Assembly: GCA_963855995.1 (NCBI GenBank)
Contig: OY979716.1
Coordinates: 50,043,379 to 50,107,378, forward strand
DNA from: Muricea muricata
Taxonomy: Eukaryota; Cnidaria; Anthozoa; Malacalcyonacea; Plexauridae
DNA: 64,000 bases
Direction: 5' to 3'
Below are positions 12,257-64,000 of this stretch, in pieces. Under the pieces are notes generated by a model that worked only from the letters and a program-made list of their open reading frames with translations, did not search any database and was not told the origin of the DNA. Each line of letters begins with the position of its first letter. Position 1 is the first letter of the stretch. The translations under genes and the position numbers were made by a program.

Positions 12257-12266
12257 ACCCTGGTGA

Positions 12267-23468: not shown

Positions 23469-23481
23469 TCACCAGGGTCTA

Positions 23482-30609: not shown

Positions 30610-33600
30610 CTAAAAAGAGTCATTGAATGAAGAGTCAGCATTGTCACTGGAAGAAACTCCGGATCCGTCGACAGCTTGAACTGCATTATCTTCCTCAGGC
30701 TCAGCGACAGCTGCTGCCCAGTCAGGGCAATTTATCGGTTTTCGTCGTGTGGAAGGTTCTCCTGTTTCGCGAGGAACAACTCTTCTTTTAATTAACTCAG
30801 ACAGTGAGTCATGATGCAGCCTGTCAAGCTTCCTTTTTGCTTTTCGAAGCGATCGACTCTCCCAGGGCAGTTTTCGCACACTGTATTTAATAATTTTATG
30901 AGGTGGCTCATCGTCGGCTTTGCTTTCTTCCGAAGACATATACTCAGGTTTCAGAATCTCCAAAACCTTTGCCATTTTGCCAGCATCCCACGAGGTTTTT
31001 TCCAGCTGCTTGAGCCTACGTGCCAGCTTCTATAACACAATATTTGTAAGGTTGTCGTAAGAAACGCAATAGCAATAGACATGCAAAAAATAATTATGGC
31101 ACAAAGCTCGGGGTTTCAGCTTAACGGTATGCCTATACGTGTAATTTATAATATCTACAAAATGCCGGTCTGCATGTATGTTATGACATACAGTTGCCTA
31201 TAAATGATATTTTTTATTGCTGAACATGCATCATGAGCTGAGAATGGAATATGAACATAAAGGCATGTCATGCATCCTGTTATTGACGTGCATATTTCTG
31301 CAATGCTTTTGTCGCCGGGAAAAAAGCTGAAATTAATACGCCGCTAGCTATATAACGATAGCCACTCGCTAGCAGTGAAATGGTTTTTGGATTATGTACA
31401 GTATGTAAATGTATATTTATACTTAATTCTTCCCCGGCCATACATCAGAATTAATGTTATGGAAACCCAGCGCTATGTACAGGAAGTTGAATCTGAGTGC
31501 ATGCTTGATTACAGGCAAATGCTGATATTTGTGTTGTGCATGCCTTAAAACCGAACACGATGAAAGTATTAGCAATTTAGTTGTTTTTCATTCAGTAAAA
31601 ATAATGAAACACAAACCTCGTCTTTTCTGTTCCGTCGTCTGCAGTTTTTTACATGCTCCCCTTGCGTGCCTTTCGTACTCCTGGCATGGGAAGCCCTTGA
31701 AAATCTAAAGTACGTCTTGAAGGCTTCTAAAAATTAACAAGAAAATGCTTTGTAAGTTAAGATCTACAGTATAAAGCATAAAGGCTTAGCATTGATCCTT
31801 TTAAGAACCAGAATAGTTAAAATATTCAATTGTGGATTGGCAAAAATATTGCGGGATCAGCATTTCAAATAGCGCACACATTGGTCATTGCATTGTCCAG
31901 ATCAGTTACAATCAAACTATAACTTTTTTGTAACAGTTTTCGTAACTGTCTTACTTGTCTATATATTCAATCTTATTTGATACTAAAATAACACAACCCC
32001 GACATCATTCTGCATACATAGCATAACGACTTTTCGAAAATCAAAAGTAGTTAAAATATTACACATAAATTACCAGACGTGAATTTAAATCACAACATAC
32101 ACACATGCAAGTGTAGTTTTACTTATTTTACATTCTTATATGTCATGAAATAAGCAATCTCATTGACACTCAAACACCGCCACACAATATATCTCACAAG
32201 GAAGGGAACTACATAAATTCTACCAAGTTAAATTTAAGGATTTTTTCATGAATTGGCGTGCTCAATAACTCGATTGAGCACGCCAACTCATGAAAAACGC
32301 TTCCGTAATATACAATTTACACAAAAAAAGTGAAAAATATTCTCCCGCTCATTGGCCGTGCTCAATCGTGTTTTTGAGCACGCGTTTCAACCAACGAAAA
32401 AGCTTGGTTTATAACATGTATATTATAATGTTATTTTTAATGAATGTTTTTTAATGTTATTTCATTTTAATAGACAAAATTTCGTTACAAAATTTTAAAT
32501 TCTTAACCATGTGCGCAGCCCACTATGGGATGTTTGCACAGTTCTTGTTCATGCCTGTCATCGCCATCGCCATGGGGTATCCGGATCCAATGTGTTGAAT
32601 TTTTGGCAGTTCATTTGTGTGGGTAGCAAAAGAAAACAACTTACAGAGATTAGCTAATAAATATATGTATGCGCGCAGTTCTGTGTCTTATGTTCTTTCA
32701 GCTACAATTATATTCATATTTGTAGAAATTATTCAACTGATGCTAAATGTTTGGCGCTATTTTCTGCATCATGCCACGAGGTTAAAAAACTCCCTTAACA
32801 TCCCCGCACAATGGGGGATTTTGACATAGGCGGAAATAAATTTTAGCATCTTTCTAAAATACCTTAGATTAGAACGGACGAGCATGGGCATTTCTCCGTT
32901 CCCCCATATTCATGAGTCAGTTCTTCAGAAACTTTGCGGCACAACATGTTGTTATGCTGCGAGTCGATACTAAAACAAATAGAGCACCGATATATTAGAT
33001 ATATGCACACAAACTACAAACGTGTGCTTCTGTAGATCTATACAACACTTCAGAATTGTCTTGCTATATTTCAAATACCCTACCCTGTAAACAAAGCTTA
33101 TTTTCCTTCCTGTTCAGAGAGTAGAAATATCCTTATGTATATCCTTAAATATTACCTTTCCTCAAACTTGAATGACAAATTACTATCATGTGCTTTCAAC
33201 GTTTTCAATTTACGACGAACATCGTTCTGTAAAAATACCAAACATTGCAAATAGCATCTTGTGTCTATGTTATAGACCAAAGTGGGTTAAAGACTGAAAT
33301 AAGGAAAATAAATAAGTATACTCTGATACACATATTTTAAAATCAGTTCCAGACTTAGCCTTACGCTCGTTTTGGATGTCGTTCACTTCAAACAATTAAC
33401 TAGGCAAGTCACCTCGTTCATATAATCAGCCTAAAATAAGAAGACACTTCTTTTTATGATAAAATAATTGATGTTAATAGCAAGATCTCGTTAACCGTTT
33501 CCTGGGGTAGTTTCAACTGAAATTACATCAGTCTGACTCATGATCCATGACGACATGTACCCATGTTGGTTCTGAATCATGTCTGTAGTTCCACCGCCAT

Positions 33601-33905
33601 TCATGCGACATTTCAATATGAACACAGCTGCAGTATTGCGAAAATGTTACAGTATAAGATTTTAGAAATTAATGAAAACTTACCCTACATAACTTCGGAA
33701 CACGAATAGACCTGGCTGGTCCTGTTTGACGGACTCGGTTCCTTCCAGGAGGCAGATTCTCAATGTTGTCAACCTTCTTCTTGATTTCCTCTAAGGACGA
33801 CTTTGTCTGGTCGACAGTATTTTTCATTTGTTCTCGTAAAAGTCTATTTTCGTTTACCACGTTTTGCAACAAAAGCACATATTGGTCTGACAAAGAAACG
33901 GCCAT
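30610..33905 (-). CDS. Small coiled-coil protein of unknown function (copy 1, complete)
   Basis: Four exons with matching phases: 33905-33684, 33226-33156, 31704-31617 and 31029-30610, 266 codons plus stop. Residues 1-60 form a coiled coil (DQYVLLLQNVVNENRLLREQ .. SLEEIKKKVDNIENL). A basic segment (KNCRRRNRKDE, then KLARRLKQLEK) follows, then a conserved-looking EYMSSEESK, KLPWESRSLRKAKRKLDRL and an acidic tail. The combination of MSSEES and LPWxS followed by a basic helix is one I have seen in a large uncharacterised cnidarian family. Nuclear location is plausible from the basic stretches. Only this copy keeps the last exon; the other two units lose it because the array junction falls in intron 3. 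It is divergent from the kinase gene at 34489. Confidence 0.72.
32242..32297. repeat. Hairpin with GTGCTCAA arms (copy 1; also in copies 2 and 3)
   Basis: Arms of 24 bases (32242-32265 and 32274-32297) are inverted with one mismatch around an 8-base loop, built on TTGGCGTGCTCAA. About 60 bases further the pair CCGTGCTCAA/TTGAGCACGCG repeats the core, so four copies of GTGCTCAA lie within 130 bp. It sits in intron 2 of the coiled-coil gene. Copy 2 has one arm base changed. Confidence 0.8.
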
Positions 33906-34488
33906 GACGATCTGATTTTACTGTGTCTTTTGAAACTAAACTAACTCAAACGTGAACCTTGAACAAATTGGACGGTTGAGCTGTCATGCAGATATACAAA
34001 ATTAGGCGGGAATGAGCAAAATGCCTCTCATTGGATGCGAACAAGACAGCACCACAGGGATGCTGATTCACATGCTAAAAGCAAGAAACAGTCCAACACA
34101 TATGGCCATAACAATTTCTCGGTGAAGCAACAATCTACGTTATTATTGACCAAACTAAAATTTCTTGTGAAGTTATTCATAACAAAATACACCATATTCG
34201 CGTCAAATGTTACATTCAATTACCATGTATCAAGATCAATGAAACAGACGATTGTTTGCACATTATTAATAATTATTGAATAATTATTTGGTGATTGGAG
34301 GGGGGTTGATAATATAGCAATCAGTGAAGCAATATCCGGAAAAGCGCGGGTGCGCGAATTTTGGTTCAACTTATTGTTTACACTCTGACAATCGACATCA
34401 TTCTGGTTCAGCGAGGGACGGAGCGAGCACGATTTAAAGCATCTTTTCTGACTATCTGGTGGTATGAGCTTACGTACAGTCGGTTGAA
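33906..34488. promoter_or_regulatory. Divergent promoter interval between coiled-coil and kinase genes
   Basis: The two start codons face away from each other across 583 bp (repeated at 45385-45967 and 56866-57448). No exon is seen in it. Shared control of the pair is inferred from the layout only; I could not recognise specific sites. Confidence 0.4.
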
Positions 34489-35343
34489 ATGGCGCATTTT
34501 AACTCGACATTCCACACAGCGAGTGGCGCACTTGCTACAGTTGGGATACGTCACGATCTGGGAGAAATCTCAGTACCACCAGTGACTCAGAAAGAGCAGA
34601 CATCTGCGAAGCAACGTCGCCTTTCTCGGCCCAACACAATTGAGGAAATTCGACGCAAAAGACGCAAAAGGAATATGAAGGAACGGGAGAAATACAAAAC
34701 AATGTCAAGAAAAGAAAAAAAATGTAAAAAAGAACGAAAAATACATGAAGCATTTACCCAACAAGAAGATAAGATAAAAAAGCTTGTCGTACGAGTACAC
34801 AAAGAAAGAAAACGTGCTGTTGATTTTTGGCGTCTGTGGGACAAGGAAAAGATGCTGCGTAGTGCAAGTACCATGTGAGTAATGTTACAAATACGTTAAA
34901 ATGTCTAACTGAAAATTATTATACCATTTACTTCACAATTATATGCAATGACCTATTGCAGTTTAAATCTGCCTCTCACCCAGAAAACTTCAGTTGACAT
35001 TCTAGGAAGGGTTGTTATGAAAAATGTAATTATCAGGGGAAGGGGTACAATCAAAACCCTTTGAGAGGCTGGAAAGAATAGGAACATTTCATAGGGGGTA
35101 GAAAGAATGGGGAAATTCCTATTTGTCAATACCAATCCCTTTTTAATACCAAATAAACCCACAAATTATGTCTTCAATACATGAAATCATTTCTCATTTT
35201 GCTGGTAGCGGCTACCATTGTACCCAACCCAATCTTTTATAAGTAACAGACAAGGAATTATTCAGAAACTGAAGCATTTGAATATTTGGTGGTTCACCAG
35301 CTTTTAAAAGTGAAAAAGGGTGCTGTTGAACAATACCAGGTCA

Positions 35344-35496
35344 CAGTGGTGTAGCCAGCCTGACAATTTAGTCTTGCCATGCAAATTTCAAAGTATTATC
35401 ATTATTCATTTCTTTAGATATTGATTGTTTTCATAATCATTGAATATAAAAATATTTGCACAGCAGGACTAAATCGTCAGGCTGGTTACGCTACTG
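35344..35496. mobile_element. 153-bp hAT-type foldback MITE (copy 1; also 46823-46975, 58304-58456)
   Basis: Ends CAGTGGTGTAGCCAGCCTGA and TCAGGCTGGTTACGCTACTG are inverted with one mismatch. Perfect 8-bp duplication CCAGGTCA at 35336-35343 and 35497-35504. It lies in intron 1 of the kinase gene. An open frame that crosses it has no protein character. Confidence 0.88.
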
Positions 35497-36219
35497 CCAG
35501 GTCAGTAATTGATATTGCTGCTATCACTGGTATTGATTACCAAGTATCCTGCATTGCAATTACTAAAAATTCAAAAGGGGGTGGAGATTACATCATAGAA
35601 TTTTGTCCATGTACACTCATTTTTAAAAAAGCCCTGTAGGAAATTTCCTAGGGGGAGAAGATTATACTGAGGATTAGTTTATTGTGCAACTTGCCTTTGG
35701 GGGTGTACACACAAAGGATTACTCCACAAGGGAGATGGGATTAAAATTGCAATAGCCCAATGTGCATTTAGTCCTGTTTAGAGCATGAAGAAATTTGCCA
35801 AATCCCTAGAGAAATTCCTGTCGTAACATTTCCTCATGTCAGCAAAAATATGTTTCAGACCATGGCATGATTGCTTGTCCTAATGATTTATTACAAGAGA
35901 TAGCTATTCAAAGGTATCAGTGCTAACCATTGGATTAATACAAACTGGTGTCATAAAGCTCATCAGTGTCTGATTCTAGTAATCAGCTCAGCACAATTTT
36001 AAAAACAAAAAATTGTTAATTGGTAATAAATGATAAATCTTTAGAATGTCTTATATAATTTAAGTTTAGCATGTAACAAATTGTGACAAAATGTCTCAAC
36101 AATACAAACCTGTGTGCCCGTGTGCTGTCAGAAGACTGCAAATCCTATTTCAGAGACCTAAATTTTAATCATTTCCTTGTGAATGCCCATATTAAAGACC
36201 TGGTCCTACTTGAGTTGTC

Positions 36220-36535
36220 TATGGTGGCCTATGAGTGCCATAACAATTACCACACTTTTTTACTATAAATTGTTACATTTTTATCACGTTTATAATAGTA
36301 TAAAATTATAAATTACAATTATTTGGTTTTACTTTATTGTAAATGAATTTTGTTTTGTTTTGTAAGAAACCTTTTAAGTTTTGTTTCGGTTTGGTTTCAG
36401 TTTTGTTTCGGTTTTGTTTTATATCAAATCAGTTCAGCTACCTTAAAAAATAAAACTGAACTAACCCATGGCCTATGAGTGCCATAGCCCGCAGTCGCGC
36501 GTGCCAAATATATGATGTACTATATGAAGTATGTC
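36220..36535 (+). repeat. Left terminal inverted repeat of the alpha-kinase transposon
   Basis: The terminal motif GGCCTATGAGTGCCATA occurs at the outer end (36226-36242) and again about 245 bp further in (near 36472), so each repeat has two copies. Between them lies TTTTGTTTCGGTTT in tandem. Two spaced motif copies per end are what a bipartite transposase binding site would look like. Confidence 0.8.
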
Positions 36536-36667
36536 CTGTGACAAAATTGAGTCGAGCACCGATTCCCACGCGAGATACGGTATTTGTATTTCTATATTAT
36601 CAAATATTATCATATTTTAAAACACACTTCTGAAAGGTCTTTTCCTTTCATATCCCACAAAATAAGA

Positions 36668-37882
36668 ATGTCGAAACGAAATTTCAAAGAGGATTTCGCA
36701 AAGTTCAAAGAGAGGGTGTCGAAAAAGAGGCGAAAAGAAGATACAACATCCAAATCAGATATGGAATATATTACAGTACAACGATTGTCCTCGCATGTTG
36801 AAGGAAGATATCAAAAGTATGCTAGGATTGGACCATTAGCAAGCGTTCCTCTCGGTCGGGAACCCACAATCCAGAATATTAAAGAGGCTTGCAAGCGCTA
36901 TTTCAACGTGGAAGATGGATCTAGCTGTGATGTACTAGCTGGGGAGAGAGGACCATCTTGGACGGAGACGAGCCAAATAAATAACTGGAAGGTAATCCAT
37001 ATCCGTTTCATTGAGGGCAGTGACGATAGCCAGTTGCGTGATGAAAAGCCGATAGATATCAGTTCCAGTCAACGGTGGAAATCTCAGGGAACCCCTACAA
37101 AAACAGCCCCTTCAAAGTCCACCAAAGTTGCTGCCTCTGTACCTCTTAGTGCTATGCTTAAACTTGGCAAAATAATTCAACCTACTGAGGAAATAGTTAC
37201 ATTGCAGCTTGAAGAATTCAAGATAAATGAAAAAGCGTGGGCTCAACCATTTGAAGTTACGCTTTCTCTTGCCAAAGAGAAATTTGCCAGTGGCGGTGTC
37301 AGAGATGCTTACATTGCTACCCCTTTGTCAGGCTTGAGTCCTGGAAAATATGTATTAAAGAAAGTCCAGGAACAAAAAGTCGATGAAATTGAAAAGCTGT
37401 TTAAGTCAATTGAAGAGCACACACGAAAAGCAGTGCAAATGAATGCACTAGTCAGAAACTTTTCTTTGACATTATCTAGTGAGGCACCAGTTGAATATGG
37501 GCAGGTCTTAAGTTACACAAAGGTTTACTTTGGGAAGCTTTATGGTGAGTTTGTAACATTAGAAGACTACCTGGAAGGCGAGTTCCAAAAATATGTCAAT
37601 AACACTGGGGAGATTTTTGGAAAAGGTGAATTAACTCTCAAGGGTGAGTCATTCTGTCACTATACCTATGAAAGGTCAGGACAGCAACTTATTGTCTTAG
37701 ACATTCAGGGAGTAGATCACAGTCTTTTTGACCCAGAAGTTGCCAGTTCAACTCTTATTGATTCTAGTGACAAGACAATCTTATTTTGCTGTGGCAACCT
37801 TTCTACAGATGCTATTGATAGGTTCAAGGAAGAACATGTTTGCAACAAATTTTGTCACATGCTTAAGCTAAATGAAATGTAG
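36668..37882 (+). CDS. Alpha-kinase (atypical Ser/Thr kinase), transposon cargo, copy 1
   Basis: Single-exon 404-residue protein; the first ATG in frame is at 36668 (the frame is open further up but only from a TTG). The N-terminal 160 residues are basic then Ser/Thr-rich linker, with a PLGREPTIQNIKEACKRYFN segment seen in related cnidarian alpha-kinases. The catalytic domain (about 170-402) has FASGGVRDAY (206-215, first loop), YVLKK (228-232, ATP lysine), EFVTLEDYLEGEFQKYVNN (294-312), FCHYTYERSG with His331, LIVLDIQGV with Asp345, LFDPE and GNLST. It ends in EEHVCNKFC with His390, Cys392 and Cys396. The His/His/Cys/Cys zinc site typical of TRPM7 and eEF2 kinase is complete, so the enzyme looks active. 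There is no channel or vWA domain. Its protein sequence is identical in all three copies. Confidence 0.88.
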   Translation: MSKRNFKEDFAKFKERVSKKRRKEDTTSKSDMEYITVQRLSSHVEGRYQKYARIGPLASVPLGREPTIQNIKEACKRYFNVEDGSSCDVLAGERGPSWTETSQINNWKVIHIRFIEGSDDSQLRDEKPIDISSSQRWKSQGTPTKTAPSKSTKVAASVPLSAMLKLGKIIQPTEEIVTLQLEEFKINEKAWAQPFEVTLSLAKEKFASGGVRDAYIATPLSGLSPGKYVLKKVQEQKVDEIEKLFKSIEEHTRKAVQMNALVRNFSLTLSSEAPVEYGQVLSYTKVYFGKLYGEFVTLEDYLEGEFQKYVNNTGEIFGKGELTLKGESFCHYTYERSGQQLIVLDIQGVDHSLFDPEVASSTLIDSSDKTILFCCGNLSTDAIDRFKEEHVCNKFCHMLKLNEM

Positions 37883-38364
37883 GCAATTTATAACCAAGTG
37901 TGAAACATGGAAAGACATTAACATACTTGAAAGAAAGAATATCTGTACATTGTTTACTTAACCTAAGGGGATTTTAACTGAAAGCAAACATTTTAAGGCT
38001 TTGTTTATTCTTGTTGCACCAAAATTGTTGAAATTTACAGCAGTATAGATGTCATCTGATAAAGATACATACTGTATTAAGGTAAATTTGTGGCCAGTAG
38101 TACCACAGACCAATTAATTTTTAACAATTTGCAGTTGGTGTATTGTAGTAGGTTGTATAAAACTTGGCTCAATTGCACAATTTTTTCCATCAAACTTTAT
38201 CACAAATATTATCACGAAACCTTGGTAATTATTGGGCACAAATTAGCAGTTATAAATATTGTGTTATGTGGTTCAAGTTTAATCTTTCATTGTTCAGATT
38301 TAACTTCAGTTTGTAAGATAAATAGAAATTTTAATGAAAAAAAAGGTCGATAAAATATTTTGTC

Positions 38365-40442
38365 TTAAAAAACATTCTCATCAACATTTGCCTTCAAGTA
38401 TAGGTAAGCATCCTTAGCATCATTTGGCTTGATTTCTTCTATTTTAGGTAAGTACTTTTCACATTCTTTACGAACAGCTGGTCTTAAGTAATCATCGTTA
38501 TGTTGCAAAACATCTGACAGCTCAGCAACCTCGAGCAGTTGTTCTTCTGTTATATCAATACCACATTGGTCACCACCATACTTCTCTGGAAACTGGAATA
38601 TGTGCTCTGGAACTCCTGTTGGCAGCTCTTTTCCTTTTTGTTTACGTGTCCTGTGATTGTTCCAAACACACTCACGAAAAACATCTAGCTCCCTTTGGAC
38701 AATTGGGATATATACATAGGCAAGTAGGTCACTACAAAAAGTTAAACAGGTTGTGTTTCTCAAAAATTTCAAGAACCACTGAGTATTTTTATAAATCAGG
38801 AATCAGGAGGATATCAGGAATAATCTCCTGACGATGACTAAAACTTAGTCGAAAGCTAGAAAATAAAAATGTTTATTTTTGGAGTTACCGTTGTTTTATA
38901 TTTTGTGTTTCTCCTTAGCTGCATGATTTTTTAGGTGTGGTGACGTATTTTCATATTTTACTGGGAGGGGCATGTGTTATCACTAAACACAGCTGCATGT
39001 AAAATGTAACTTATGCAGTTATCATACCGGTCATTTTGATCACTGGAATCGTAATCTCCACTTTCAACTAAGAATGTAAGTTGCTCTTTAAAAAAACGCT
39101 CCATTCTTTCCAGAAGCTCCCTCCACCATCTCTCAATCTTGTTTTGGGTGGATGGCCCATATAATATTGCATCTAATGGATCATCCAAATCACCATTTTT
39201 TTCTCTGAGGAAACAATGAATTGTGGTCATGACATCAGTTTCTGTCCCTCTGTCGACCCTCAATGTTTGTGGTAGAACTGAGAAAAATACACAATACAGC
39301 ATTTCATATATTATACATGCATGTATGAAGAAAGTATGATATTCTCACTTCAAGCTACTGTAGTGAGCCACCAGAGAAATAGCAAAATTATAAATAATGT
39401 AAAACAATACAACATCCTACCCCTAGACTTAAATAGGTACTCCAAGTAGAACCTTCCTATTACCAAAGGGTTATTGTTCGTTGTCCATACTCTGAGAAAA
39501 TTCATCCTACCACTATAAGTATCAAGGCCACCGTAAATGCACAAAGGAAACATAGACTTTTGATAGCCACAAAGCTTGTCCTGCCCATCCAAGGACATAG
39601 TACTGTTGGATCCCTGTTGATTAACAAAATCATAAAAAAATAATAAGCTAGCCTTCATGGTATAGTAAAAATGACCAAGAAAAATAAGACAAACTGATCT
39701 TGGAGCAACATTCTCAATAAGCATTCAAATGATTCAATAAGGCTCTTTATTAAGTAACATCTGCATTCCCCAGGTGGCTTTTATAACAGAGACCCCCCCC
39801 CCCATTTTATACAGTATTGCTACCCTGGGGACAAGAAAACTCTAAATCCCAACCCTAGGGAAATTTCAATTATTATCAATTGCCTGTAAAGCAATGACTT
39901 GTACAATGCAAAGAACAGAATCGTCAGAATATGCTTCCAGTTGTCAAAGGTCATGTATAAACAACATAGTTGACAGCCCAAATTCCTTGTGTTTGAACAA
40001 TAACGTTAGAACTTACTCCGCTCACAAATACGTTCGTTCTTCGTGGCCGTTTCGCCTTTCCAATTCCACCTCTAGATTTCAGTCCTTCTGGATCTGCTTC
40101 CCCCATCACAGCATAAACTAAATCGCGCGAGGCATTGAGCCCATGCACCTCTCTAACTTTCTGCTGCATTGCTCGATAACCCAAAAGAACACCTGGACCG
40201 TCTAACTCTTTTTTCACAGCTCTCTTTACGTCTTCCAAGTCAATTTCATAGTCCGTGTATTTGATGCCAAAGTGCTGAAGCCTACGACTTAAACTGCGAA
40301 TGCTCCATGCATACATGGGATAATGCACAATCATGAAATCTAAAATCTCTTCACGTCTTAAATTCTGCCGTACATATTTTTCAAGGTCTTGTCTCATCTC
40401 TTCATCATTTTCCCAATCGTTGTTTCTAATGCGTTCCGCAAT
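38365..40442 (-). CDS. IS3EU-like integrase-fold transposase (copy 1, start codon lost)
   Basis: Four exons in matching phase: 40442-40017, 39613-39421, 39277-39028 and 38731-38365, 411 residues in the intact form. Residues 30-63 form an HTH (LRREEILDFMIVHYPMYAWS..LSRRLQHFGI). The linker LLGYRAMQQKVREVHGL..RDLVYAVM precedes the core. The DDE triad is Asp151 (MSLDGQDKL), Asp215 (LRVDRGTE) and Glu255 (QNKIERWW), 39 residues between the last two, close to the D-D-35-E of IS3 and retroviral integrases. In this copy the ATG is ATT (40442-40440), the only change seen in the reading; the next in-frame Met is residue 16 (MRQDLEKYV), which would keep the HTH. No retroelement polyprotein surrounds it. 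Confidence 0.85.
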
Positions 40443-40459
40443 ATTTATAAAAGTGCTCC

Positions 40460-40796
40460 TGTGTGGATATACTTTATGTATGATATATTTGGCACGTGGG
40501 ACTGCGGGCTATGGCTATCTAATCTGTGCTATGGCACTCATAGGCCATGGGTTAGTTCAGTTTTATTTTTTAATGTAACTGAACTGATTTGATATAAAAC
40601 AAAACCGAAACAAAACTGAAACCAAACCAAAACAAAACTTAAAAGGTTTCTTACAAAACAAAACAAAATTCGTTTACAATAAAGTAAAACCAAATAATTG
40701 TAATTTATAATTTTATACTATTATGAACGTGATAAAAATGTAACAATTTATAGTAAAAAGGTGTGGTAATTGTTATGGCACTCATAGGCCACCATA
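40460..40796 (-). repeat. Right terminal inverted repeat of the alpha-kinase transposon
   Basis: Reverse complement of 36220-36535. It carries about 18 extra bases (ATGGCTATCTAATCTGTGCT region, near 40510-40530) beside the inner copy of the GGCCTATGAGTGCCATA motif. The transposase start lies just inside. Confidence 0.8.
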
Positions 40797-41635
40797 GTTG
40801 TCCCTTTGGCACTTAAAAATTCAATAAAATGTATGTTCCAGCTGCTTGGTCATAAGCATGAAAAATGTCTTCAGAGATGTTGTTTAGATCATTTTATATA
40901 GTAATAGTGTTTACATCATACCAGTCAAGTGGTTAGCTAAGTGGCCACCAGGTGAATCAGAGGTAAAAATGCTTTGTTTGAATAATTTTAGAAACGTACA
41001 TCAGATTGAAAAGGAAAATATTGAAGATATTAATGAAGACATTGATGATTTGATTGGTGAAGGTAAATTTGGAACATGTATGAAAAAAGTGTATAGAGGC
41101 CATGTTGTTGCTGTGAAGTACTATAAAGAGAATTCCTTAGCATCAGATGTGGAGAAAGAAGCAATGATGATAAATACATTTGATCATCCAGGTGAATACT
41201 TAACATTGTCTCAGTCTCAATTCCAAAAAGAAAATGTATACTATGTTCATATTAACAACCAATCATCTTTCTTTTTATACATGCTAATGCCCTGGTGCTG
41301 CCTTGTGTAATTTGTTGCACTAGTTTCTAGCTTGTTCGTGCAAACAATAGTTCAAGGCCATCGGAAGCATATTGATATTGGGGGGCTGGCAACAGTAGAA
41401 ACCAGAATTATTATAAATCTGAATTAGGTTCACACTTTTCTAGTCTGGGTGTTTTGCTCTGCCTTAGAAAGATTGAAATTATTGGGAGGGGGGCTCAAGC
41501 TCAAGCCCCCCCCCCCCTCCCCCCAGCCCCCCACTTTTGATGGACTATTGGGACTGTTAGGCCAGGCAACTTTGCTTAGCAAGAGAAATTAATACTTATA
41601 AACATAAGTACTGTAAAGTAAAGTTAATAACAGTA

Positions 41636-41807
41636 CAGTGATGGATCTAGAGCGTTAATTGGGGGGGGGGGGGTGCATATTCATATTATTCAGGTTCTGA
41701 CCGATTAATTTCTTTTGAAATAAGGTTGATTTCAAAAGAAATTGGTCGGGCAGAACCTGAATATATGAATATGCACCCTCTCAAATAATGCTCAAGATCC
41801 ACCTATG
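41636..41807. mobile_element. 172-bp foldback hAT-type MITE (copy 1; copy 2 at 53117-53288)
   Basis: Ends CAGTGATGGATC and GATCCACCTATG are imperfectly inverted, and the interior folds back (AGGTTCTGACCGATTAATTT against AAATTGGTCGGGCAGAACCT). Perfect 8-bp duplication TAACAGTA at 41628-41635 and 41808-41815. It contains a G run whose length differs between copies. It lies in intron 2 of the kinase gene. Confidence 0.85.
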
Positions 41808-43095
41808 TAACAGTATAAGTACTGTACAGTACATTATTGAAATGCTAAATTTTAATGCTTCTTGATGGAGCCAGTGACTACACTCCATCCTATTTTTTCC
41901 TTTTGATTTGAAGCATGCTAAACAATGAACAATCAGTTAAGTACACACAGGGCCAGATATAGCATTAGGTCAAGAAATTAAACACTGAGAAATAAAATCA
42001 AAATCATGTGGCATTAAGTAAAATAATCTGGTGTTTGAAAGGGTCATATAGTAAAGTTGAGTATCTCAGGGTACTGTACATTCTGTACATGTACAGTGGG
42101 TTAAAATCTGTTTTACCAAAAGATTTTGTGTTTTAGGTTTACCATTTGTTTTTGGTATGAATGTGCAAAATAAGCCCTACATCCTTGTTACTGAATTTTA
42201 TGGAATTGATGGCCAATGTGTGACGTTAGCAAATGCTCTCAAGGGTAGGTTGACACTGAATGTATTACAATGGGCAGGCATATTGGGAAAAATATCTGAA
42301 GCTCTTTCTCATATCCACAGTAAAGGGTATATCCATGGTGATATAAAAAGTGACAATATTGTGATCAGAAGTGCATGTGGTTCATACATGCCCATAATAA
42401 TAGATTTTGGCAAAGCAAAAAAGTCTGGTGAGGCAAAAAAGTATAAACTGACTGAGAATGAAAAAGAGAAATACAGTAGAAAATACAAACACATTGCACC
42501 AGAAGTTGTGTAGGGAAGGCATCCCAAATCTGCAGCCAGTGATATATATAGCAATAGACATGCAAAAAATAATTATGGCACAAAGCTCGGGGTTTCAGCT
42601 TAACGGTATGCCTATACGTGTAATTTATAATATCTACAAAATGCCGGTCTGCATGTATGTTATGACATACAGTTGCCTATAAATGATATTTTTTATTGCT
42701 GAACATGCATCATGAGCTGAGAATGGAATATGAACATAAAGGCATGTCATGCATCCTGTTATTGACGTGCATATTTCTGCAATGCTTTTGTCGCCGGGAA
42801 AAAAGCTGAAATTAATACGCCGCTAGCTATATAACGATAGCCACTCGCTAGCAGTGAAATGGTTTTTGGATTATGTACAGTATGTAAATGTATATTTATA
42901 CTTAATTCTTCCCCGGCCATACATCAGAATTAATGTTATGGAAACCCAGCGCTATGTACAGGAAGTTGAATCTGAGTGCATGCTTGATTACAGGCAAATG
43001 CTGATATTTGTGTTGTGCATGCCTTAAAACCGAACACGATGAAAGTATTAGCAATTTAGTTGTTTTTCATTCAGTAAAAATAATGAAACACAAAC

Positions 43096-45384: not shown

Positions 45385-48146
45385 GACGATCTGATTTTAC
45401 TGTGTCTTTTGAAACTAAACTAACTCAAACGTGAACCTTGAACAAATTGGACGGTTGAGCTGTCATGCAGATATACAAAATTAGGCGGGAATGAGCAAAA
45501 TGCCTCTCATTGGACGCGAACAAGACAGCACCACAGGGATGCTGATTCACATGCTAAAAGCAAGAAACAGTCCAACACATATGGCCATAACAATTTCTCG
45601 GTGAAGCAACAATCTACGTTATTATTGACCAAACTAAAATTTCTTGTGAAGTTATTCATAACAAAATACACCATATTCGCGTCAAATGTTACATTCAATT
45701 ACCATGTATCAAGATCAATGAAACAGACGATTGTTTGCACATTATTAATAATTATTGAATAATTATTTGGTGATTGGAGGGGGGTTGATAATATAGCAAT
45801 CAGTGAAGCAATATCCGGAAAAGCGCGGGTGCGCGAATTTTGGTTCAACTTATTGTTTACACTCTGACAATCGACATCATTCTGGTTCAGCGAGGGACGG
45901 AGCGAGCACGATTTAAAGCATCTTTTCTGACTATCTGGTGGTATGAGCTTACGTACAGTCGGTTGAAATGGCGCATTTTAACTCGACATTCCACACAGCG
46001 AGTGGCGCACTTGCTACAGTTGGGATACGTCACGATCTGGGAGAAATCTCAGTACCACCAGTGACTCAGAAAGAGCAGACATCTGCGAAGCAACGTCGCC
46101 TTTCTCGGCCCAACACAATTGAGGAAATTCGACGCAAAAGACGCAAAAGGAATATGAAGGAACGGGAGAAATACAAAACAATGTCAAGAAAAGAAAAAAA
46201 ATGTAAAAAAGAACGAAAAATACATGAAGCATTTACCCAACAAGAAGATAAGATAAAAAAGCTTGTCGTACGAGTACACAAAGAAAGAAAACGTGCTGTT
46301 GATTTTTGGCGTCTGTGGGACAAGGAAAAGATGCTGCGTAGTGCAAGTACCATGTGAGTAATGTTACAAATACGTTAAAATGTCTAACTGAAAATTATTA
46401 TACCATTTACTTCACAATTATATGCAATGACCTATTGCAGTTTAAATCTGCCTCTCACCCAGAAAACTTCAGTTGACATTCTAGGAAGGGTTGTTATGAA
46501 AAATGTAATTATCAGGGGAAGGGGTACAATCAAAACCCTTTGAGAGGCTGGAAAGAATAGGAACATTTCATAGGGGGTAGAAAGAATGGGGAAATTCCTA
46601 TTTGTCAATACCAATCCCTTTTTAATACCAAATAAACCCACAAATTATGTCTTCAATACATGAAATCATTTCTCATTTTGCTGGTAGCGGCTACCATTGT
46701 ACCCAACCCAATCTTTTATAAGTAACAGACAAGGAATTATTCAGAAACTGAAGCATTTGAATATTTGGTGGTTCACCAGCTTTTAAAAGTGAAAAAGGGT
46801 GCTGTTGAACAATACCAGGTCACAGTGGTGTAGCCAGCCTGACAATTTAGTCTTGCCATGCAAATTTCAAAGTATTATCATTATTCATTTCTTTAGATAT
46901 TGATTGTTTTCATAATCATTGAATATAAAAATATTTGCACAGCAGGACTAAATCGTCAGGCTGGTTACGCTACTGCCAGGTCAGTAATTGATATTGCTGC
47001 TATCACTGGTATTGATTACCAAGTATCCTGCATTGCAATTACTAAAAATTCAAAAGGGGGTGGAGATTACATCATAGAATTTTGTCCATGTACACTCATT
47101 TTTAAAAAAGCCCTGTAGGAAATTTCCTAGGGGGAGAAGATTATACTGAGGATTAGTTTATTGTGCAACTTGCCTTTGGGGGTGTACACACAAAGGATTA
47201 CTCCACAAGGGAGATGGGATTAAAATTGCAATAGCCCAATGTGCATTTAGTCCTGTTTAGAGCATGAAGAAATTTGCCAAATCCCTAGAGAAATTCCTGT
47301 CGTAACATTTCCTCATGTCAGCAAAAATATGTTTCAGACCATGGCATGATTGCTTGTCCTAATGATTTATTACAAGAGATAGCTATTCAAAGGTATCAGT
47401 GCTAACCATTGGATTAATACAAACTGGTGTCATAAAGCTCATCAGTGTCTGATTCTAGTAATCAGCTCAGCACAATTTTAAAAACAAAAAATTGTTAATT
47501 GGTAATAAATGATAAATCTTTAGAATGTCTTATATAATTTAAGTTTAGCATGTAACAAATTGTGACAAAATGTCTCAACAATACAAACCTGTGTGCCCGT
47601 GTGCTGTCAGAAGACTGCAAATCCTATTTCAGAGACCTAAATTTTAATCATTTCCTTGTGAATGCCCATATTAAAGACCTGGTCCTACTTGAGTTGTCTA
47701 TGGTGGCCTATGAGTGCCATAACAATTACCACACTTTTTTACTATAAATTGTTACATTTTTATCACGTTTATAATAGTATAAAATTATAAATTACAATTA
47801 TTTGGTTTTACTTTATTGTAAATGAATTTTGTTTTGTTTTGTAAGAAACCTTTTAAGTTTTGTTTCGGTTTGGTTTCAGTTTTGTTTCGGTTTTGTTTTA
47901 TATCAAATCAGTTCAGCTACCTTAAAAAATAAAACTGAACTAACCCATGGCCTATGAGTGCCATAGCCCGCAGTCGCGCGTGCCAAATATATGATGTACT
48001 ATATGAAGTATGTCCTGTGACAAAATTGAGTCGAGCACCGATTCCCACGCGAGATACGGTATTTGTATTTCTATATTATCAAATATTATCATATTTTAAA
48101 ACACACTTCTGAAAGGTCTTTTCCTTTCATATCCCACAAAATAAGA

Positions 48147-49361
48147 ATGTCGAAACGAAATTTCAAAGAGGATTTCGCAAAGTTCAAAGAGAGGGTGTCG
48201 AAAAAGAGGCGAAAAGAAGATACAACATCCAAATCAGATATGGAATATATTACAGTACAACGATTGTCCTCGCATGTTGAAGGAAGATATCAAAAGTATG
48301 CTAGGATTGGACCATTAGCAAGCGTTCCTCTCGGTCGGGAACCCACAATCCAGAATATTAAAGAGGCTTGCAAGCGCTATTTCAACGTGGAAGATGGATC
48401 TAGCTGTGATGTACTAGCTGGGGAGAGAGGACCATCTTGGACGGAGACGAGCCAAATAAATAACTGGAAGGTAATCCATATCCGTTTCATTGAGGGCAGT
48501 GACGATAGCCAGTTGCGTGATGAAAAGCCGATAGATATCAGTTCCAGTCAACGGTGGAAATCTCAGGGAACCCCTACAAAAACAGCCCCTTCAAAGTCCA
48601 CCAAAGTTGCTGCCTCTGTACCTCTTAGTGCTATGCTTAAACTTGGCAAAATAATTCAACCTACTGAGGAAATAGTTACATTGCAGCTTGAAGAATTCAA
48701 GATAAATGAAAAAGCGTGGGCTCAACCATTTGAAGTTACGCTTTCTCTTGCCAAAGAGAAATTTGCCAGTGGCGGTGTCAGAGATGCTTACATTGCTACC
48801 CCTTTGTCAGGCTTGAGTCCTGGAAAATATGTATTAAAGAAAGTCCAGGAACAAAAAGTCGATGAAATTGAAAAGCTGTTTAAGTCAATTGAAGAGCACA
48901 CACGAAAAGCAGTGCAAATGAATGCACTAGTCAGAAACTTTTCTTTGACATTATCTAGTGAGGCACCAGTTGAATATGGGCAGGTCTTAAGTTACACAAA
49001 GGTTTACTTTGGGAAGCTTTATGGTGAGTTTGTAACATTAGAAGACTACCTGGAAGGCGAGTTCCAAAAATATGTCAATAACACTGGGGAGATTTTTGGA
49101 AAAGGTGAATTAACTCTCAAGGGTGAGTCATTCTGTCACTATACCTATGAAAGGTCAGGACAGCAACTTATTGTCTTAGACATTCAGGGAGTAGATCACA
49201 GTCTTTTTGACCCAGAAGTTGCCAGTTCAACTCTTATTGATTCTAGTGACAAGACAATCTTATTTTGCTGTGGCAACCTTTCTACAGATGCTATTGATAG
49301 GTTCAAGGAAGAACATGTTTGCAACAAATTTTGTCACATGCTTAAGCTAAATGAAATGTAG
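48147..49361 (+). CDS. Alpha-kinase, copy 2
   Basis: 404 residues, identical in protein sequence to copy 1 (36668-37882), with the His/His/Cys/Cys zinc site and catalytic Asp intact. Confidence 0.87.
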   Translation: MSKRNFKEDFAKFKERVSKKRRKEDTTSKSDMEYITVQRLSSHVEGRYQKYARIGPLASVPLGREPTIQNIKEACKRYFNVEDGSSCDVLAGERGPSWTETSQINNWKVIHIRFIEGSDDSQLRDEKPIDISSSQRWKSQGTPTKTAPSKSTKVAASVPLSAMLKLGKIIQPTEEIVTLQLEEFKINEKAWAQPFEVTLSLAKEKFASGGVRDAYIATPLSGLSPGKYVLKKVQEQKVDEIEKLFKSIEEHTRKAVQMNALVRNFSLTLSSEAPVEYGQVLSYTKVYFGKLYGEFVTLEDYLEGEFQKYVNNTGEIFGKGELTLKGESFCHYTYERSGQQLIVLDIQGVDHSLFDPEVASSTLIDSSDKTILFCCGNLSTDAIDRFKEEHVCNKFCHMLKLNEM

Positions 49362-49843
49362 GCAATTTATAACCAAGTGTGAAACATGGAAAGACATTAA
49401 CATACTTGAAAGAAAGAATATCTGTACATTGTTTACTTAACCTAAGGGGATTTTAACTGAAAGCAAACATTTTAAGGCTTTGTTTATTCTTGTTGCACCA
49501 AAATTGTTGAAATTTACAGCAGTATAGATGTCATCTGATAAAGATACATACTGTATTAAGGTAAATTTGTGTCCAGTAGTACCACAGACCAATTAATTTT
49601 TAACAATTTGCAGTTGGTGTATTGTAGTAGGTTGTATAAAACTTGGCTCAATTGCACAATTTTTTCCATCAAACTTTATCACAAATATTATCACGAAACC
49701 TTGGTAATTATTGGGCACAAATTAGCAGTTATAAATATTGTGTTATGTGGTTCAAGTTTAATCTTTCATTGTTCAGATTTAACTTCAGTTTGTAAGATAA
49801 ATAGAAATTTTAATGAAAAAAAAGGTCGATAAAATATTTTGTC

Positions 49844-51921
49844 TTAAAAAACATTCTCATCAACATTTGCCTTCAAGTATAGGTAAGCATCCTTAGCATC
49901 ATTTGGCTTGATTTCTTCTATTTTAGGTAAGTACTTTTCACATTCTTTACGAACAGCTGGTCTTAAGTAATCATCGTTATGTTGCAAAACATCTGACAGC
50001 TCAGCAACCTCGAGCAGTTGTTCTTCTGTTATATCAATACCACATTGGTCACCACCATACTTCTCTGGAAACTGGAATATGTGCTCTGGAACTCCTGTTG
50101 GCAGCTCTTTTCCTTTTTGTTTACGTGTCCTGTGATTGTTCCAAACACACTCACGAAAAACATCTAGCTCCCTTTGGACAATTGGGATATATACATAGGC
50201 AAGTAGGTCACTACAAAAAGTTAAACAGGTTGTGTTTCTCAAAAATTTCAAGAACCACTGAGTATTTTTATAAATCAGGAATCAGGAGGATATCAGGAAT
50301 AATCTCCTGACGATGACTAAAACTTAGTCGAAAGCTAGAAAATAAAAATGTTTATTTTTGGAGTTACCGTTGTTTTATATTTTGTGTTTCTCCTTAGCTG
50401 CATGATTTTTTAGGTGTGGTGACGTATTTTCATATTTTACTGGGAGGGGCATGTGTTATCACTAAACACAGCTGCATGTAAAATGTAACTTATGCAGTTA
50501 TCATACCGGTCATTTTGATCACTGGAATCGTAATCTCCACTTTCAACTAAGAATGTAAGTTGCTCTTTAAAAAAACGCTCCATTCTTTCCAGAAGCTCCC
50601 TCCACCATCTCTCAATCTTGTTTTGGGTGGATGGCCCATATAATATTGCATCTAATGGATCATCCAAATCACCATTTTTTTCTCTGAGGAAACAATGAAT
50701 TGTGGTCATGACATCAGTTTCTGTCCCTCTGTCGACCCTCAATGTTTGTGGTAGAACTGAGAAAAATACACAATACAGCATTTCATATATTATACATGCA
50801 TGTATGAAGAAAGTATGATATTCTCACTTCAAGCTACTGTAGTGAGCCACCAGAGAAATAGCAAAATTATAAATAATGTAAAACAATACAACATCCTACC
50901 CCTAGACTTAAATAGGTACTCCAAGTAGAACCTTCCTATTACCAAAGGGTTATTGTTCGTTGTCCATACTCTGAGAAAATTCATCCTACCACTATAAGTA
51001 TCAAGGCCACCGTAAATGCACAAAGGAAACATAGACTTTTGATAGCCACAAAGCTTGTCCTGCCCATCCAAGGACATAGTACTGTTGGATCCCTGTTGAT
51101 TAACAAAATCATAAAAAAATAATAAGCTAGCCTTCATGGTATAGTAAAAATGACCAAGAAAAATAAGACAAACTGATCTTGGAGCAACATTCTCAATAAG
51201 CATTCAAATGATTCAATAAGGCTCTTTATTAAGTAACATCTGCATTCCCCAGGTGGCTTTTATAACAGAGACCCCCCCCCCCATTTTATACAGTATTGCT
51301 ACCCTGGGGACAAGAAAACTCTAAATCCCAACCCTAGGGAAATTTCAATTATTATCAATTGCCTGTAAAGCAATGACTTGTACAATGCAAAGAACAGAAT
51401 CGTCAGAATATGCTTCCAGTTGTCAAAGGTCATGTATAAACAACATAGTTGACAGCCCAAATTCCTTGTGTTTGAACAATAACGTTAGAACTTACTCCGC
51501 TCACAAATACGTTCGTTCTTCGTGGCCGTTTCGCCTTTCCAATTCCACCTCTAGATTTCAGTCCTTCTGGATCTGCTTCCCCCATCACAGCATAAACTAA
51601 ATCGCGCGAGGCATTGAGCCCATGCACCTCTCTAACTTTCTGCTGCATTGCTCGATAACCCAAAAGAACACCTGGACCGTCTAACTCTTTTTTCACAGCT
51701 CTCTTTACGTCTTCCAAGTCAATTTCATAGTCCGTGTATTTGATGCCAAAGTGCTGAAGCCTACGACTTAAACTGCGAATGCTCCATGCATACATGGGAT
51801 AATGCACAATCATGAAATCTAAAATCTCTTCACGTCTTAAATTCTGCCGTACATATTTTTCAAGGTCTTGTCTCATCTCTTCATCATTTTCCCAATCGTT
51901 GTTTCTAATGCGTTCCGCCAT
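49844..51921 (-). CDS. IS3EU-like transposase, copy 2 (intact)
   Basis: Exons 51921-51496, 51092-50900, 50756-50507 and 50210-49844 give an uninterrupted 411-residue reading from an ATG (MAERIRNNDWEN). It has the HTH and the D151/D215/E255 triad described for copy 1. Unlike copy 1 the start codon is present. If the predicted introns are removed correctly this copy could make a full-length transposase. Confidence 0.85.
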
Positions 51922-54576
51922 ATTTATAAAAGTGCTCCTGTGTGGATATACTTTATGTATGATATATTTGGCACGTGGGACTGCGGGCTATGGCTATCTA
52001 ATCTGTGCTATGGCACTCATAGGCCATGGGTTAGTTCAGTTTTATTTTTTAATGTAACTGAACTGATTTGATATAAAACAAAACCGAAACAAAACTGAAA
52101 CCAAACCAAAACAAAACTTAAAAGGTTTCTTACAAAACAAAACAAAATTCGTTTACAATAAAGTAAAACCAAATAATTGTAATTTATAATTTTATACTAT
52201 TATGAACGTGATAAAAATGTAACAATTTATAGTAAAAAGGTGTGGTAATTGTTATGGCACTCATAGGCCACCATAGTTGTCCCTTTGGCACTTAAAAATT
52301 CAATAAAATGTATGTTCCAGCTGCTTGGTCATAAGCATGAAAAATGTCTTCAGAGATGTTGTTTAGATCATTTTATATAGTAATAGTGTTTACATCATAC
52401 CAGTCAAGTGGTTAGCTAAGTGGCCACCAGGTGAATCAGAGGTAAAAATGCTTTGTTTGAATAATTTTAGAAACGTACATCAGATTGAAAAGGAAAATAT
52501 TGAAGATATTAATGAAGACATTGATGATTTGATTGGTGAAGGTAAATTTGGAACATGTATGAAAAAAGTGTATAGAGGCCATGTTGTTGCTGTGAAGTAC
52601 TATAAAGAGAATTCCTTAGCATCAGATGTGGAGAAAGAAGCAATGATGATAAATACATTTGATCATCCAGGTGAATACTTAACATTGTCTCAGTCTCAAT
52701 TCCAAAAAGAAAATGTATACTATGTTCATATTAACAACCAATCATCTTTCTTTTTATACATGCTAATGCCCTGGTGCTGCCTTGTGTAATTTGTTGCACT
52801 AGTTTCTAGCTTGTTCGTGCAAACAATAGTTCAAGGCCATCGGAAGCATATTGATATTGGGGGGCTGGCAACAGTAGAAACCAGAATTATTATAAATCTG
52901 AATTAGGTTCACACTTTTCTAGTCTGGGTGTTTTGCTCTGCCTTAGAAAGATTGAAATTATTGGGAGGGGGGCTCAAGCTCAAGCCCCCCCCCCCCCCTC
53001 CCCCCAGCCCCCCACTTTTGATGGACTATTGGGACTGTTAGGCCAGGCAACTTTGCTTAGCAAGAGAAATTAATACTTATAAACATAAGTACTGTAAAGT
53101 AAAGTTAATAACAGTACAGTGATGGATCTAGAGCGTTAATTGGGGGGGGGGGGGTGCATATTCATATTATTCAGGTTCTGACCGATTAATTTCTTTTGAA
53201 ATAAGGTTGATTTCAAAAGAAATTGGTCGGGCAGAACCTGAATATATGAATATGCACCCTCTCAAATAATGCTCAAGATCCACCTATGTAACAGTATAAG
53301 TACTGTACAGTACATTATTGAAATGCTAAATTTTAATGCTTCTTGATGGAGCCAGTGACTACACTCCATCCTATTTTTTCCTTTTGATTTGAAGCATGCT
53401 AAACAATGAACAATCAGTTAAGTACACACAGGGCCAGATATAGCATTAGGTCAAGAAATTAAACACTGAGAAATAAAATCAAAATCATGTGGCATTAAGT
53501 AAAATAATCTGGTGTTTGAAAGGGTCATATAGTAAAGTTGAGTATCTCAGGGTACTGTACATTCTGTACATGTACAGTGGGTTAAAATCTGTTTTACCAA
53601 AAGATTTTGTGTTTTAGGTTTACCATTTGTTTTTGGTATGAATGTGCAAAATAAGCCCTACATCCTTGTTACTGAATTTTATGGAATTGATGGCCAATGT
53701 GTGACGTTAGCAAATGCTCTCAAGGGTAGGTTGACACTGAATGTATTACAATGGGCAGGCATATTGGGAAAAATATCTGAAGCTCTTTCTCATATCCACA
53801 GTAAAGGGTATATCCATGGTGATATAAAAAGTGACAATATTGTGATCAGAAGTGCATGTGGTTCATACATGCCCATAATAATAGATTTTGGCAAAGCAAA
53901 AAAGTCTGGTGAGGCAAAAAAGTATAAACTGACTGAGAATGAAAAAGAGAAATACAGTAGAAAATACAAACACATTGCACCAGAAGTTGTGTAGGGAAGG
54001 CATCCCAAATCTGCAGCCAGTGATATATATAGCAATAGACATGCAAAAAATAATTATGGCACAAAGCTCGGGGTTTCAGCTTAACGGTATGCCTATACGT
54101 GTAATTTATAATATCTACAAAATGCCGGTCTGCATGTATGTTATGACATACAGTTGCCTATAAATGATATTTTTTATTGCTGAACATGCATCATGAGCTG
54201 AGAATGGAATATGAACATAAAGGCATGTCATGCATCCTGTTATTGACGTGCATATTTCTGCAATGCTTTTGTCGCCGGGAAAAAAGCTGAAATTAATACG
54301 CCGCTAGCTATATAACGATAGCCACTCGCTAGCAGTGAAATGGTTTTTGGATTATGTACAGTATGTAAATGTATATTTATACTTAATTCTTCCCCGGCCA
54401 TACATCAGAATTAATGTTATGGAAACCCAGCGCTATGTACAGGAAGTTGAATCTGAGTGCATGCTTGATTACAGGCAAATGCTGATATTTGTGTTGTGCA
54501 TGCCTTAAAACCGAACACGATGAAAGTATTAGCAATTTAGTTGTTTTTCATTCAGTAAAAATAATGAAACACAAAC

Positions 54577-60842: not shown

Positions 60843-61324
60843 GCAATTTATAACCAAGTGTGAAACATGGAAAGACATTAACATACTTGAAAGAAAGAAT
60901 ATCTGTACATTGTTTACTTAACCTAAGGGGATTTTAACTGAAAGCAAACATTTTAAGGCTTTGTTTATTCTTGTTGCACCAAAATTGTTGAAATTTACAG
61001 CAGTATAGATGTCATCTGATAAAGATACATACTGTATTAAGGTAAATTTGTGTCCAGTAGTACCACAGACCAATTAATTTTTAACAATTTGCAGTTGGTG
61101 TATTGTAGTAGGTTGTATAAAACTTGGCTCAATTGCACAATTTTTTCCATCAAACTTTATCACAAATATTATCACGAAACCTTGGTAATTATTGGGCACA
61201 AATTAGCAGTTATAAATATTGTGTTATGTGGTTCAAGTTTAATCTTTCATTGTTCAGATTTAACTTCAGTTTGTAAGATAAATAGAAATTTTAATGAAAA
61301 AAAAGGTCAATAAAATATTTTGTC

Positions 61325-63401: not shown

Positions 63402-64000
63402 ATTTATAAAAGTGCTCCTGTGTGGATATACTTTATGTATGATATATTTGGCACGTGGGACTGCGGGCTATGGCTATCTAATCTGTGCTATGGCACTCAT
63501 AGGCCATGGGTTAGTTCAGTTTTATTTTTTAATGTAACTGAACTGATTTGATATAAAACAAAACCGAAACAAAACTGAAACCAAACCAAAACAAAACTTA
63601 AAAGGTTTCTTACAAAACAAAACAAAATTCGTTTACAATAAAGTAAAACCAAATAATTGTAATTTATAATTTTATACTATTATGAACGTGATAAAAATGT
63701 AACAATTTATAGTAAAAAGGTGTGGTAATTGTTATGGCACTCATAGGCCACCATAGTTGTCCCTTTGGCACTTAAAAATTCAATAAAATGTATGTTCCAG
63801 CTGCTTGGTCATAAGCATGAAAAATGTCTTCAGAGATGTTGTTTAGATCATTTTATATAGTAATAGTGTTTACATCATACCAGTCAAGTGGTTAGCTAAG
63901 TGGCCACCAGGTGAATCAGAGGTAAAAATGCTTTGTTTGAATAATTTTAGAAACGTACATCAGATTGAAAAGGAAAATATTGAAGATATTAATGAAGACA

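What the first reader, a model, noticed from the sequence alone, without database searches (positions are those of the whole stretch)
36220..40796. A DNA transposon pairing an integrase-fold transposase with an alpha-kinase
Seen: 315-337 bp inverted repeats, TATGG termini, a perfect 6-bp duplication GTTGTC, and exactly two convergent genes filling the space. One is a four-exon DDE transposase with D151, D215 and E255; the other is a 404-residue alpha-kinase with all metal and catalytic residues. Known: alpha-kinases (TRPM7, eEF2K, vWKA) are cellular regulators, and IS3EU elements as I recall them are described by their transposase. Inference: the kinase is a regular element gene, possibly modifying the transposase, chromatin or translation in favour of the element. 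I know of no described transposon class defined by an alpha-kinase.
Basis: partly seen in the sequence, partly recalled or inferred. Interest (0 to 1): 0.88.

Follow-up and report, generated by a model that had tools for sequence, protein, structure and literature searches.

The report
Jumping gene carrying an alpha-kinase
An animal DNA transposon of the IS3EU type carries its own alpha-type protein kinase gene beside the transposase; such kinases were already reported in fungal IS3EU elements, but the animal copies suggest the kinase is an old, conserved part of the element rather than stray cargo.

Summary
The element is 36220-40796, with 98% matching inverted repeats, TATGG..CCATA ends, a GTTGTC duplication and two convergent genes: a four-exon DDE transposase (PF24764) and a single-exon 404-aa alpha-kinase (PF02816).

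The kinase looks like a regular gene of this transposon type. Of 133 full-length kinases (query included), 131 keep the same uncharacterised N-terminal motif and 117 keep all nine catalytic and zinc residues. Five large contigs hold both a kinase and a transposase relative (0.005 expected); a sixth pair has consecutive gene numbers. Kinase and transposase distances co-vary over seven pairs (Mantel r 0.89). Against: 23 of 27 species-named transposases shared no contig with a listed kinase.

It is not a new class. Kojima 2025 (PMC12730594) reports fungal IS3EU elements with transposase and alpha-kinase in opposite orientation, 6-bp duplications and TAYGG..CCRTA ends. New here are the animal two-gene form, the conserved N-terminal domain and the co-divergence. 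The substrate is unknown; nuclear action on transposase or chromatin is inferred.

The parts
36214..36219 (.). left target-site duplication GTTGTC
   Evidence: sequence
36220..36537 (+). left terminal inverted repeat, TATGG start; 18-bp motif TGGCCTATGAGTGCCATA near its outer end (36225) and again at 36469
   Evidence: the inner limit is approximate
36668..37882 (+). alpha-kinase gene, single exon, 404 aa; N-terminal module of unknown fold (about residues 33-116), kinase domain 207-396
   Evidence: PF02816 E 9.5e-29; conservation in relatives; N-terminal part has no significant Pfam match and no PDB match
38365..38731 (-). transposase exon 4 (with stop)
39028..39277 (-). transposase exon 3 (second D and E of DDE)
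39421..39613 (-). transposase exon 2 (first D)
40017..40442 (-). transposase exon 1; start codon at 40442-40440 present in copies 2 and 3 but not in copy 1, next in-frame Met at 40397
40480..40796 (-). right terminal inverted repeat, ends CCATA; carries a 20-bp insertion relative to the left arm; inner limit approximate
40797..40802 (.). right target-site duplication GTTGTC
   Evidence: sequence
31069..42547 (.). first unit of the tandem array that contains the element
47699..52275 (+). second copy of the element (unit 2, 42548-54028)
59180..63755 (+). third copy of the element (unit 3, from 54029, cut by the window end)

Best explanation
It is an IS3EU-type cut-and-paste DNA transposon of a (probably anthozoan) animal with two core genes: a DDE transposase that recognises the long inverted repeats and makes 6-bp target duplications, and an alpha-type protein kinase with its own conserved N-terminal domain. 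Shown: anatomy, an intact kinase frame with the catalytic and zinc residues, conservation of the N-terminal module and kinase across relatives, repeated co-location and co-divergence with the transposase. Inferred: the kinase works in the nucleus (a near-invariant basic KR pair in a basic N-terminus) and promotes the element's own transposition or expression by phosphorylating the transposase, a partner in the transposase-DNA complex, or chromatin, much as released TRPM7 kinase phosphorylates histone H3. I put about 0.85 on 'conserved functional element gene' and about 0.35 on 'nuclear action on transposase or chromatin'.
For: TIR, TSD and termini fit the published IS3EU description: TA..TA ends and usually 6-bp TSDs (passages of PMC10045372), TAYGG..CCRTA (PMC12730594). 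PF24764 in the window's protein and in 49 of 49 relatives that I chose to align out of 120 listed. PF02816 in all 66 rows of the kinase alignment, the window's own included. In the full-length set of 133 (132 proteins of 380 aa or more plus the query), 117 keep all nine catalytic/zinc positions and 131 keep the N-terminal D-G-P-S positions. Kinase tree: 59 of 77 inner branches starred, with a long-branch warning for P0120. Five contigs of 20 kb or more are shared between 86 distinct kinase and 64 transposase contig lengths; a jitter control gives 0.005 expected, maximum 1 in 2000. A sixth pair has consecutive gene numbers (P0057/P0153). Distances over seven pairs: r 0.89, reached by 15 of 5040 permutations; without the window r 0.82, 12 of 720. 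Small trees agree in coarse order, though no branch of the transposase tree is starred. Fungal IS3EU have the same gene pair in opposite orientation. Kinase ORF identical in all three tandem copies. Nuclear alpha-kinase precedent: passages of PMC8128914 and PMC13143021.
Against: 23 of 27 species-named transposases with a contig share no contig length with a listed kinase (Dendronephthya 0 of 7, Xenia 0 of 3, Clytia 0 of 3, molluscs 0 of 4). The lists are cut at 120 rows, but IS3EU lineages without a kinase are not excluded. 16 of 133 kinases lack at least one of the nine residues, 12 of these at the C-terminal zinc positions and 10 only there. Same contig is not same element: the Ciona contig is 12.3 Mb, and equal length is itself only a sign of the same contig. 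The window's copies are not independent. No dN/dS, expression data or substrate. The nuclear signal is only a basic stretch.
Confidence: 0.75

Rival explanations
1. Passenger: an alpha-kinase gene was captured once by an old IS3EU lineage and rides along, giving the host or the element little; its persistence reflects age and copy number rather than function in transposition.
For: 23 of 27 species-named transposases show no listed kinase on the same contig; some kinases have lost residues (16 of 133); a degraded relic of a related kinase lies at 5201-5446 without a transposase found beside it.
Against: 117 of 133 keep all nine residues although identity to the query falls to about 35%; an N-terminal domain special to these kinases is conserved; co-divergence with the transposase; the same gene pair in fungi.
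Confidence: 0.17
2. The kinase acts on host translation or signalling (eEF2-kinase-like or innate-immune-like) to blunt a host response to transposon activity, not on the transposition machinery.
For: Profile matches to eEF2 kinase (1.7e-23) and myosin heavy chain kinase A (4.8e-25) are almost as good as to the TRP-channel kinase 1ia9, TRPM7 as I recall it (5.6e-28); alpha-kinases have diverse cytoplasmic targets (recalled).
Against: Basic N-terminus with near-invariant K20 R21 hints at the nucleus; no second known domain was found by Pfam in the window's kinase.
Confidence: 0.2
3. Accident: a host alpha-kinase gene was trapped between the ends of one element in this genome only.
For: Only one independent insertion is visible in the window.
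Against: Relatives with the same N-terminal domain and co-located transposases in Exaiptasia, Ciona, a EukProt species and an unnamed contig; fungal IS3EU have the same pair.
Confidence: 0.02

Closest known systems
TET+ IS3EU transposons of rust fungi and Tuber (Kojima 2025, PMC12730594; section 4.1 read whole, other passages seen)
   Same: Transposase and alpha-kinase in opposite orientation, 6-bp TSDs, TAYGG..CCRTA termini
   Different: The fungal families described have a TET/JBP dioxygenase between the two genes; here there is none, and the host is an animal. Fungal TIRs are given only as longer than 30 bp (here about 300). Whether the fungal pair is convergent, and whether those kinases share the N-terminal domain, could not be seen.
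IS3EU/GingerRoot superfamily (PMC10045372, passages seen)
   Same: TA..TA termini, 6-bp TSD, integrase-like DDE transposase
   Different: The word 'kinase' does not occur in the main text of that paper
Cellular alpha-kinases (TRPM6/7 kinase, eEF2K, MHCK-A, ALPK1)
   Same: Kinase domain by sequence, catalytic Lys/Asp/Gln and the His/Cys zinc site
   Different: Stand-alone 404-aa protein with an N-terminal domain without significant match in Pfam or PDB, single exon, encoded between transposon ends
Cnidarian 'TRPM6-like' proteins with only a kinase domain (PMC13143021, passages seen)
   Same: Kinase hits here carry such names (P0012, P0080)
   Different: That paper calls such sequences wrongly annotated TRPM; 'transpos' occurs 0 times in its main text. 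Whether its sequences are the same ones was not checked.

Membership tests
IS3EU | TA..TA (TAYGG..CCRTA) termini | tested here: met
   TATGG..CCATA; definition
IS3EU | 6-bp target-site duplication | tested here: met
   GTTGTC both sides; one independent insertion only
IS3EU | IS3/IS481-related DDE transposase | tested here: met
   PF24764 E 3.1e-18; a relative (P0131) matches NCBIfam IS481 weakly, E 0.001, 18.7 bits, far below its cut-off of 224
IS3EU | Transposase groups with Repbase IS3EU in a tree | not testable with these tools
   No Repbase sequences available
IS481EU | TSDs of about 4, 15 or 25 bp and TNT..AYA ends | tested here: not met
   6-bp TSD and TATGG..CCATA ends; definition
Alpha-kinase (PF02816) | Score above the curated cut-off over the whole domain | tested here: met
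   101.2 against 21.3 bits, profile 1-185 of 185
Alpha-kinase (PF02816) | Catalytic Lys, Glu, Asp, Gln, Asp and the His/Cys zinc ligands (roles recalled from TRPM7, positions matched by alignment to 1ia9) | tested here: met
   K231, E299, H331, D345, Q347, D355, H390, C392, C396
TET+ IS3EU of fungi | TET/JBP gene between transposase and kinase | tested here: not met
   The largest open frame lying between the two genes is 90 aa; no TET model was searched against it

The most novel reading that the evidence does not exclude
The alpha-kinase with its private N-terminal domain is a founding, required gene of an IS3EU lineage that spans animals and fungi: a transposon whose movement is controlled by its own protein kinase, and the true source of many stand-alone 'TRPM6-like' or 'myosin kinase-like' genes in cnidarian genomes and possibly of the alpha-kinase expansion in rust fungi.
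Probability: 0.35. Interest if true: 0.68.

Novelty: new member of a known kind. Interest (0 to 1): 0.45.

Why it matters
The one published mention that I found of this transposon-borne kinase is a two-sentence remark with no function. If the kinase is required for transposition, it would be a self-encoded switch for a eukaryotic transposon and testable in cell culture. It may also explain why cnidarian genomes are annotated with kinase-only 'TRPM6' genes: some genes so named fall in this family, and one of them (P0012) sits on a contig with this transposase, so they are probably transposon genes.

Tried and rejected
Genome-wide TIR search in the window's own genome: the genome search did not answer nine identical requests, so copy number, kinase-less copies and dN/dS stay open. 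Viral contigs with kinase and transposase alignments (13 and 33 pattern matches, none confirmed), prokaryotic genome contigs with the kinase alignment only (543 pattern matches, none confirmed), phage and plasmid records with the kinase only (no match): no relatives there, so an origin or carrier in those collections is not supported. A third protein search from the most distant listed kinase (P0120) was meant to reach fungi; it reached Ciona and Clytia but no named fungus among the 120 rows listed. No Rfam family at gathering threshold in 30000-43000 and no tRNA in the window. N-terminal domain: no PDB match even at E 10, and only Pfam matches below their cut-offs. PHROGs: no match. The transposase alignment has no PDB match at E 0.1. 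Rejected: accidental trapping of a host gene; IS481EU membership; the three window copies as independent evidence. Papers: listings contain PMC12730594; beyond it I saw no title or abstract on a transposon-borne alpha-kinase in the listings, but most listed papers were not opened, the library holds open-licence PMC papers only, and Repbase entries were not available. Passages of PMC6505742 turned out to concern eIF2-alpha kinase; passages of PMC4150398 and PMC5295586 mention alpha-kinases in wheat rusts without any link to transposons.
Full report
Observation. The element lies exactly at 36220-40796, flanked by GTTGTC at 36214-36219 and 40797-40802. Its arms are 98% complementary over 270 nt (BLAST E 6e-130) and remain similar for roughly 50 bp more, past a 20-bp insertion in the right arm. 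Each arm carries an 18-bp motif near its outer end and again 244 bp further in (12 matches in the window, four in each of three copies; 0.03 expected by chance).

Genes. The kinase is one open frame, 36668-37882, 404 aa, with Pfam Alpha_kinase at E 9.5e-29. The transposase is on the other strand in four exons with GT..AG introns and matches PF24764, an integrase core, at E 3.1e-18. From the next in-frame Met copy 1 would still make 396 aa with all three residues. The largest open frame lying between the two genes is 90 aa.

From 31069 to the window end the sequence is a tandem array of a roughly 11.48-kb unit, 99.9% identical over 21,456 aligned bases. The three element copies share flanks and duplication and are therefore one insertion amplified later. 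They differ at a handful of sites, none in the kinase frame. So the window by itself gives one independent case.

Relatives. The kinase search gave 165 proteins (120 listed), the transposase search 266 (120 listed), and a search from the most distant listed kinase 149 (120 listed, 83 of them new). Where a species is named, it is a cnidarian or Ciona for the kinase, and these plus limpets for the transposase. Of 133 full-length kinases (132 proteins of 380 aa or more plus the query; the shorter listed proteins were left out), 117 keep all nine catalytic and zinc positions and 131 keep the N-terminal D-G-P-S positions. C75, G95, P96 and R113 are invariant in all 133. Of the 16 that lack a residue, 12 are changed or gapped at the C-terminal zinc positions. 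The N-terminal domain has no significant Pfam match and no PDB match, yet it aligns along its length even with the most distant group (profile comparison, 411 columns, 33% identity overall).

Linkage. Equal contig lengths in the kinase and transposase lists were taken as a sign of the same contig. Of 86 distinct kinase and 64 transposase contigs of 20 kb or more, five are shared (Exaiptasia 143151, 214097 and 374143; Ciona 12273785; unnamed 64267). Jittering the lengths by up to 2% gives a mean of 0.005 and never more than one in 2000 trials. Four shorter shared lengths (1503, 1640, 2842, 4612) were not counted because short values may coincide. A EukProt pair has consecutive gene numbers (P0057, P0153), and the Exaiptasia pair on 374143 has locus numbers two apart. 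Against this, only 4 of 27 species-named transposases with a contig (one named row without a contig, P0162, left out) and 4 of 16 species-named kinases fall into such pairs. The lists are truncated, so this neither proves nor excludes kinase-less lineages.

Co-divergence. Over seven kinase-transposase pairs (window plus six) the two distance tables correlate at r 0.89; 15 of 5040 permutations reach it. Without the window it is 0.82, 12 of 720. Small trees give the same coarse order, but no branch of the transposase tree reaches starred support. Several of the proteins are partial (302, 320, 334 aa), and the pairs are not independent, so this is moderate evidence for long joint inheritance.

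Literature. Kojima 2025 (PMC12730594; [quoted passage not shown] the families make 6-bp duplications and end TAYGG..CCRTA. This is the same kind of element; the present one is the two-gene form in an animal. The word kinase occurs twice in its main text, both in that section, and no function is proposed there. PMC13143021 (passages) notes that some cnidarian 'TRPM6' sequences are only a kinase domain; such names occur among our hits (P0012, P0080), and P0012 shares a contig length with a transposase. PMC4469406 (passages) calls the alpha-kinase family highly expanded in the rusts; that these are transposon-derived is my inference and untested.

Mechanism. Shown: an intact, conserved kinase that repeatedly lies with the transposase. 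Inferred: nuclear action. The protein begins with a basic stretch whose K20 and R21 are near-invariant, and released TRPM7 kinase acts in the nucleus on histone H3 (passages of PMC8128914). The most likely use is phosphorylation of the transposase, of a partner in the transposase-DNA complex, or of chromatin at the element. A cytoplasmic role (translation, host response) and a passenger role remain open.

Host. Not identified.

Noticed in passing
window 31069-64000: Tandem array of an 11.48-kb unit, about 2.9 copies in the window at 99.9% identity, starting at 31069 and running off the window; the units differ by a few substitutions and two small indels.
   Followed up: partly
window 40380-40445: Copy 1 lacks the transposase start codon that copies 2 and 3 carry; an in-frame Met 15 residues on could still serve.
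   Followed up: yes
window 5201-5446 (+): Relic of a second, different alpha-kinase of this family (41% to a Desmophyllum protein, P0300), one stop, only the start of the kinase domain found; no transposase match beside it.
   Followed up: partly
window 11717-12304 and 23464-24087 (+): Pieces of degraded PF24764-like transposase of another lineage; in the translations both broken ends seem to run into similar minisatellite sequence, as if split by later events.
   Followed up: no
window 40888-41307 and 42061-42510 (+): Pieces of a eukaryotic-type protein kinase gene (PF00069: E 2.9e-12 for the second piece, weak for the first) in the tandem unit next to the element, cut near the unit boundary.
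   Followed up: no
window 7911-10587 and 14699-17427 (-): Long frames that to my eye resemble other transposon proteins; of the three scanned, two had no Pfam match and one only weak DUF1258 similarity below its cut-off.
   Followed up: no
proteins P0012, P0080, P0077: Cnidarian genes named TRPM6, TRPM6-like or eEF2 kinase are members of this transposon kinase family; P0012 and P0077 share contig lengths with transposase relatives.
   Followed up: partly
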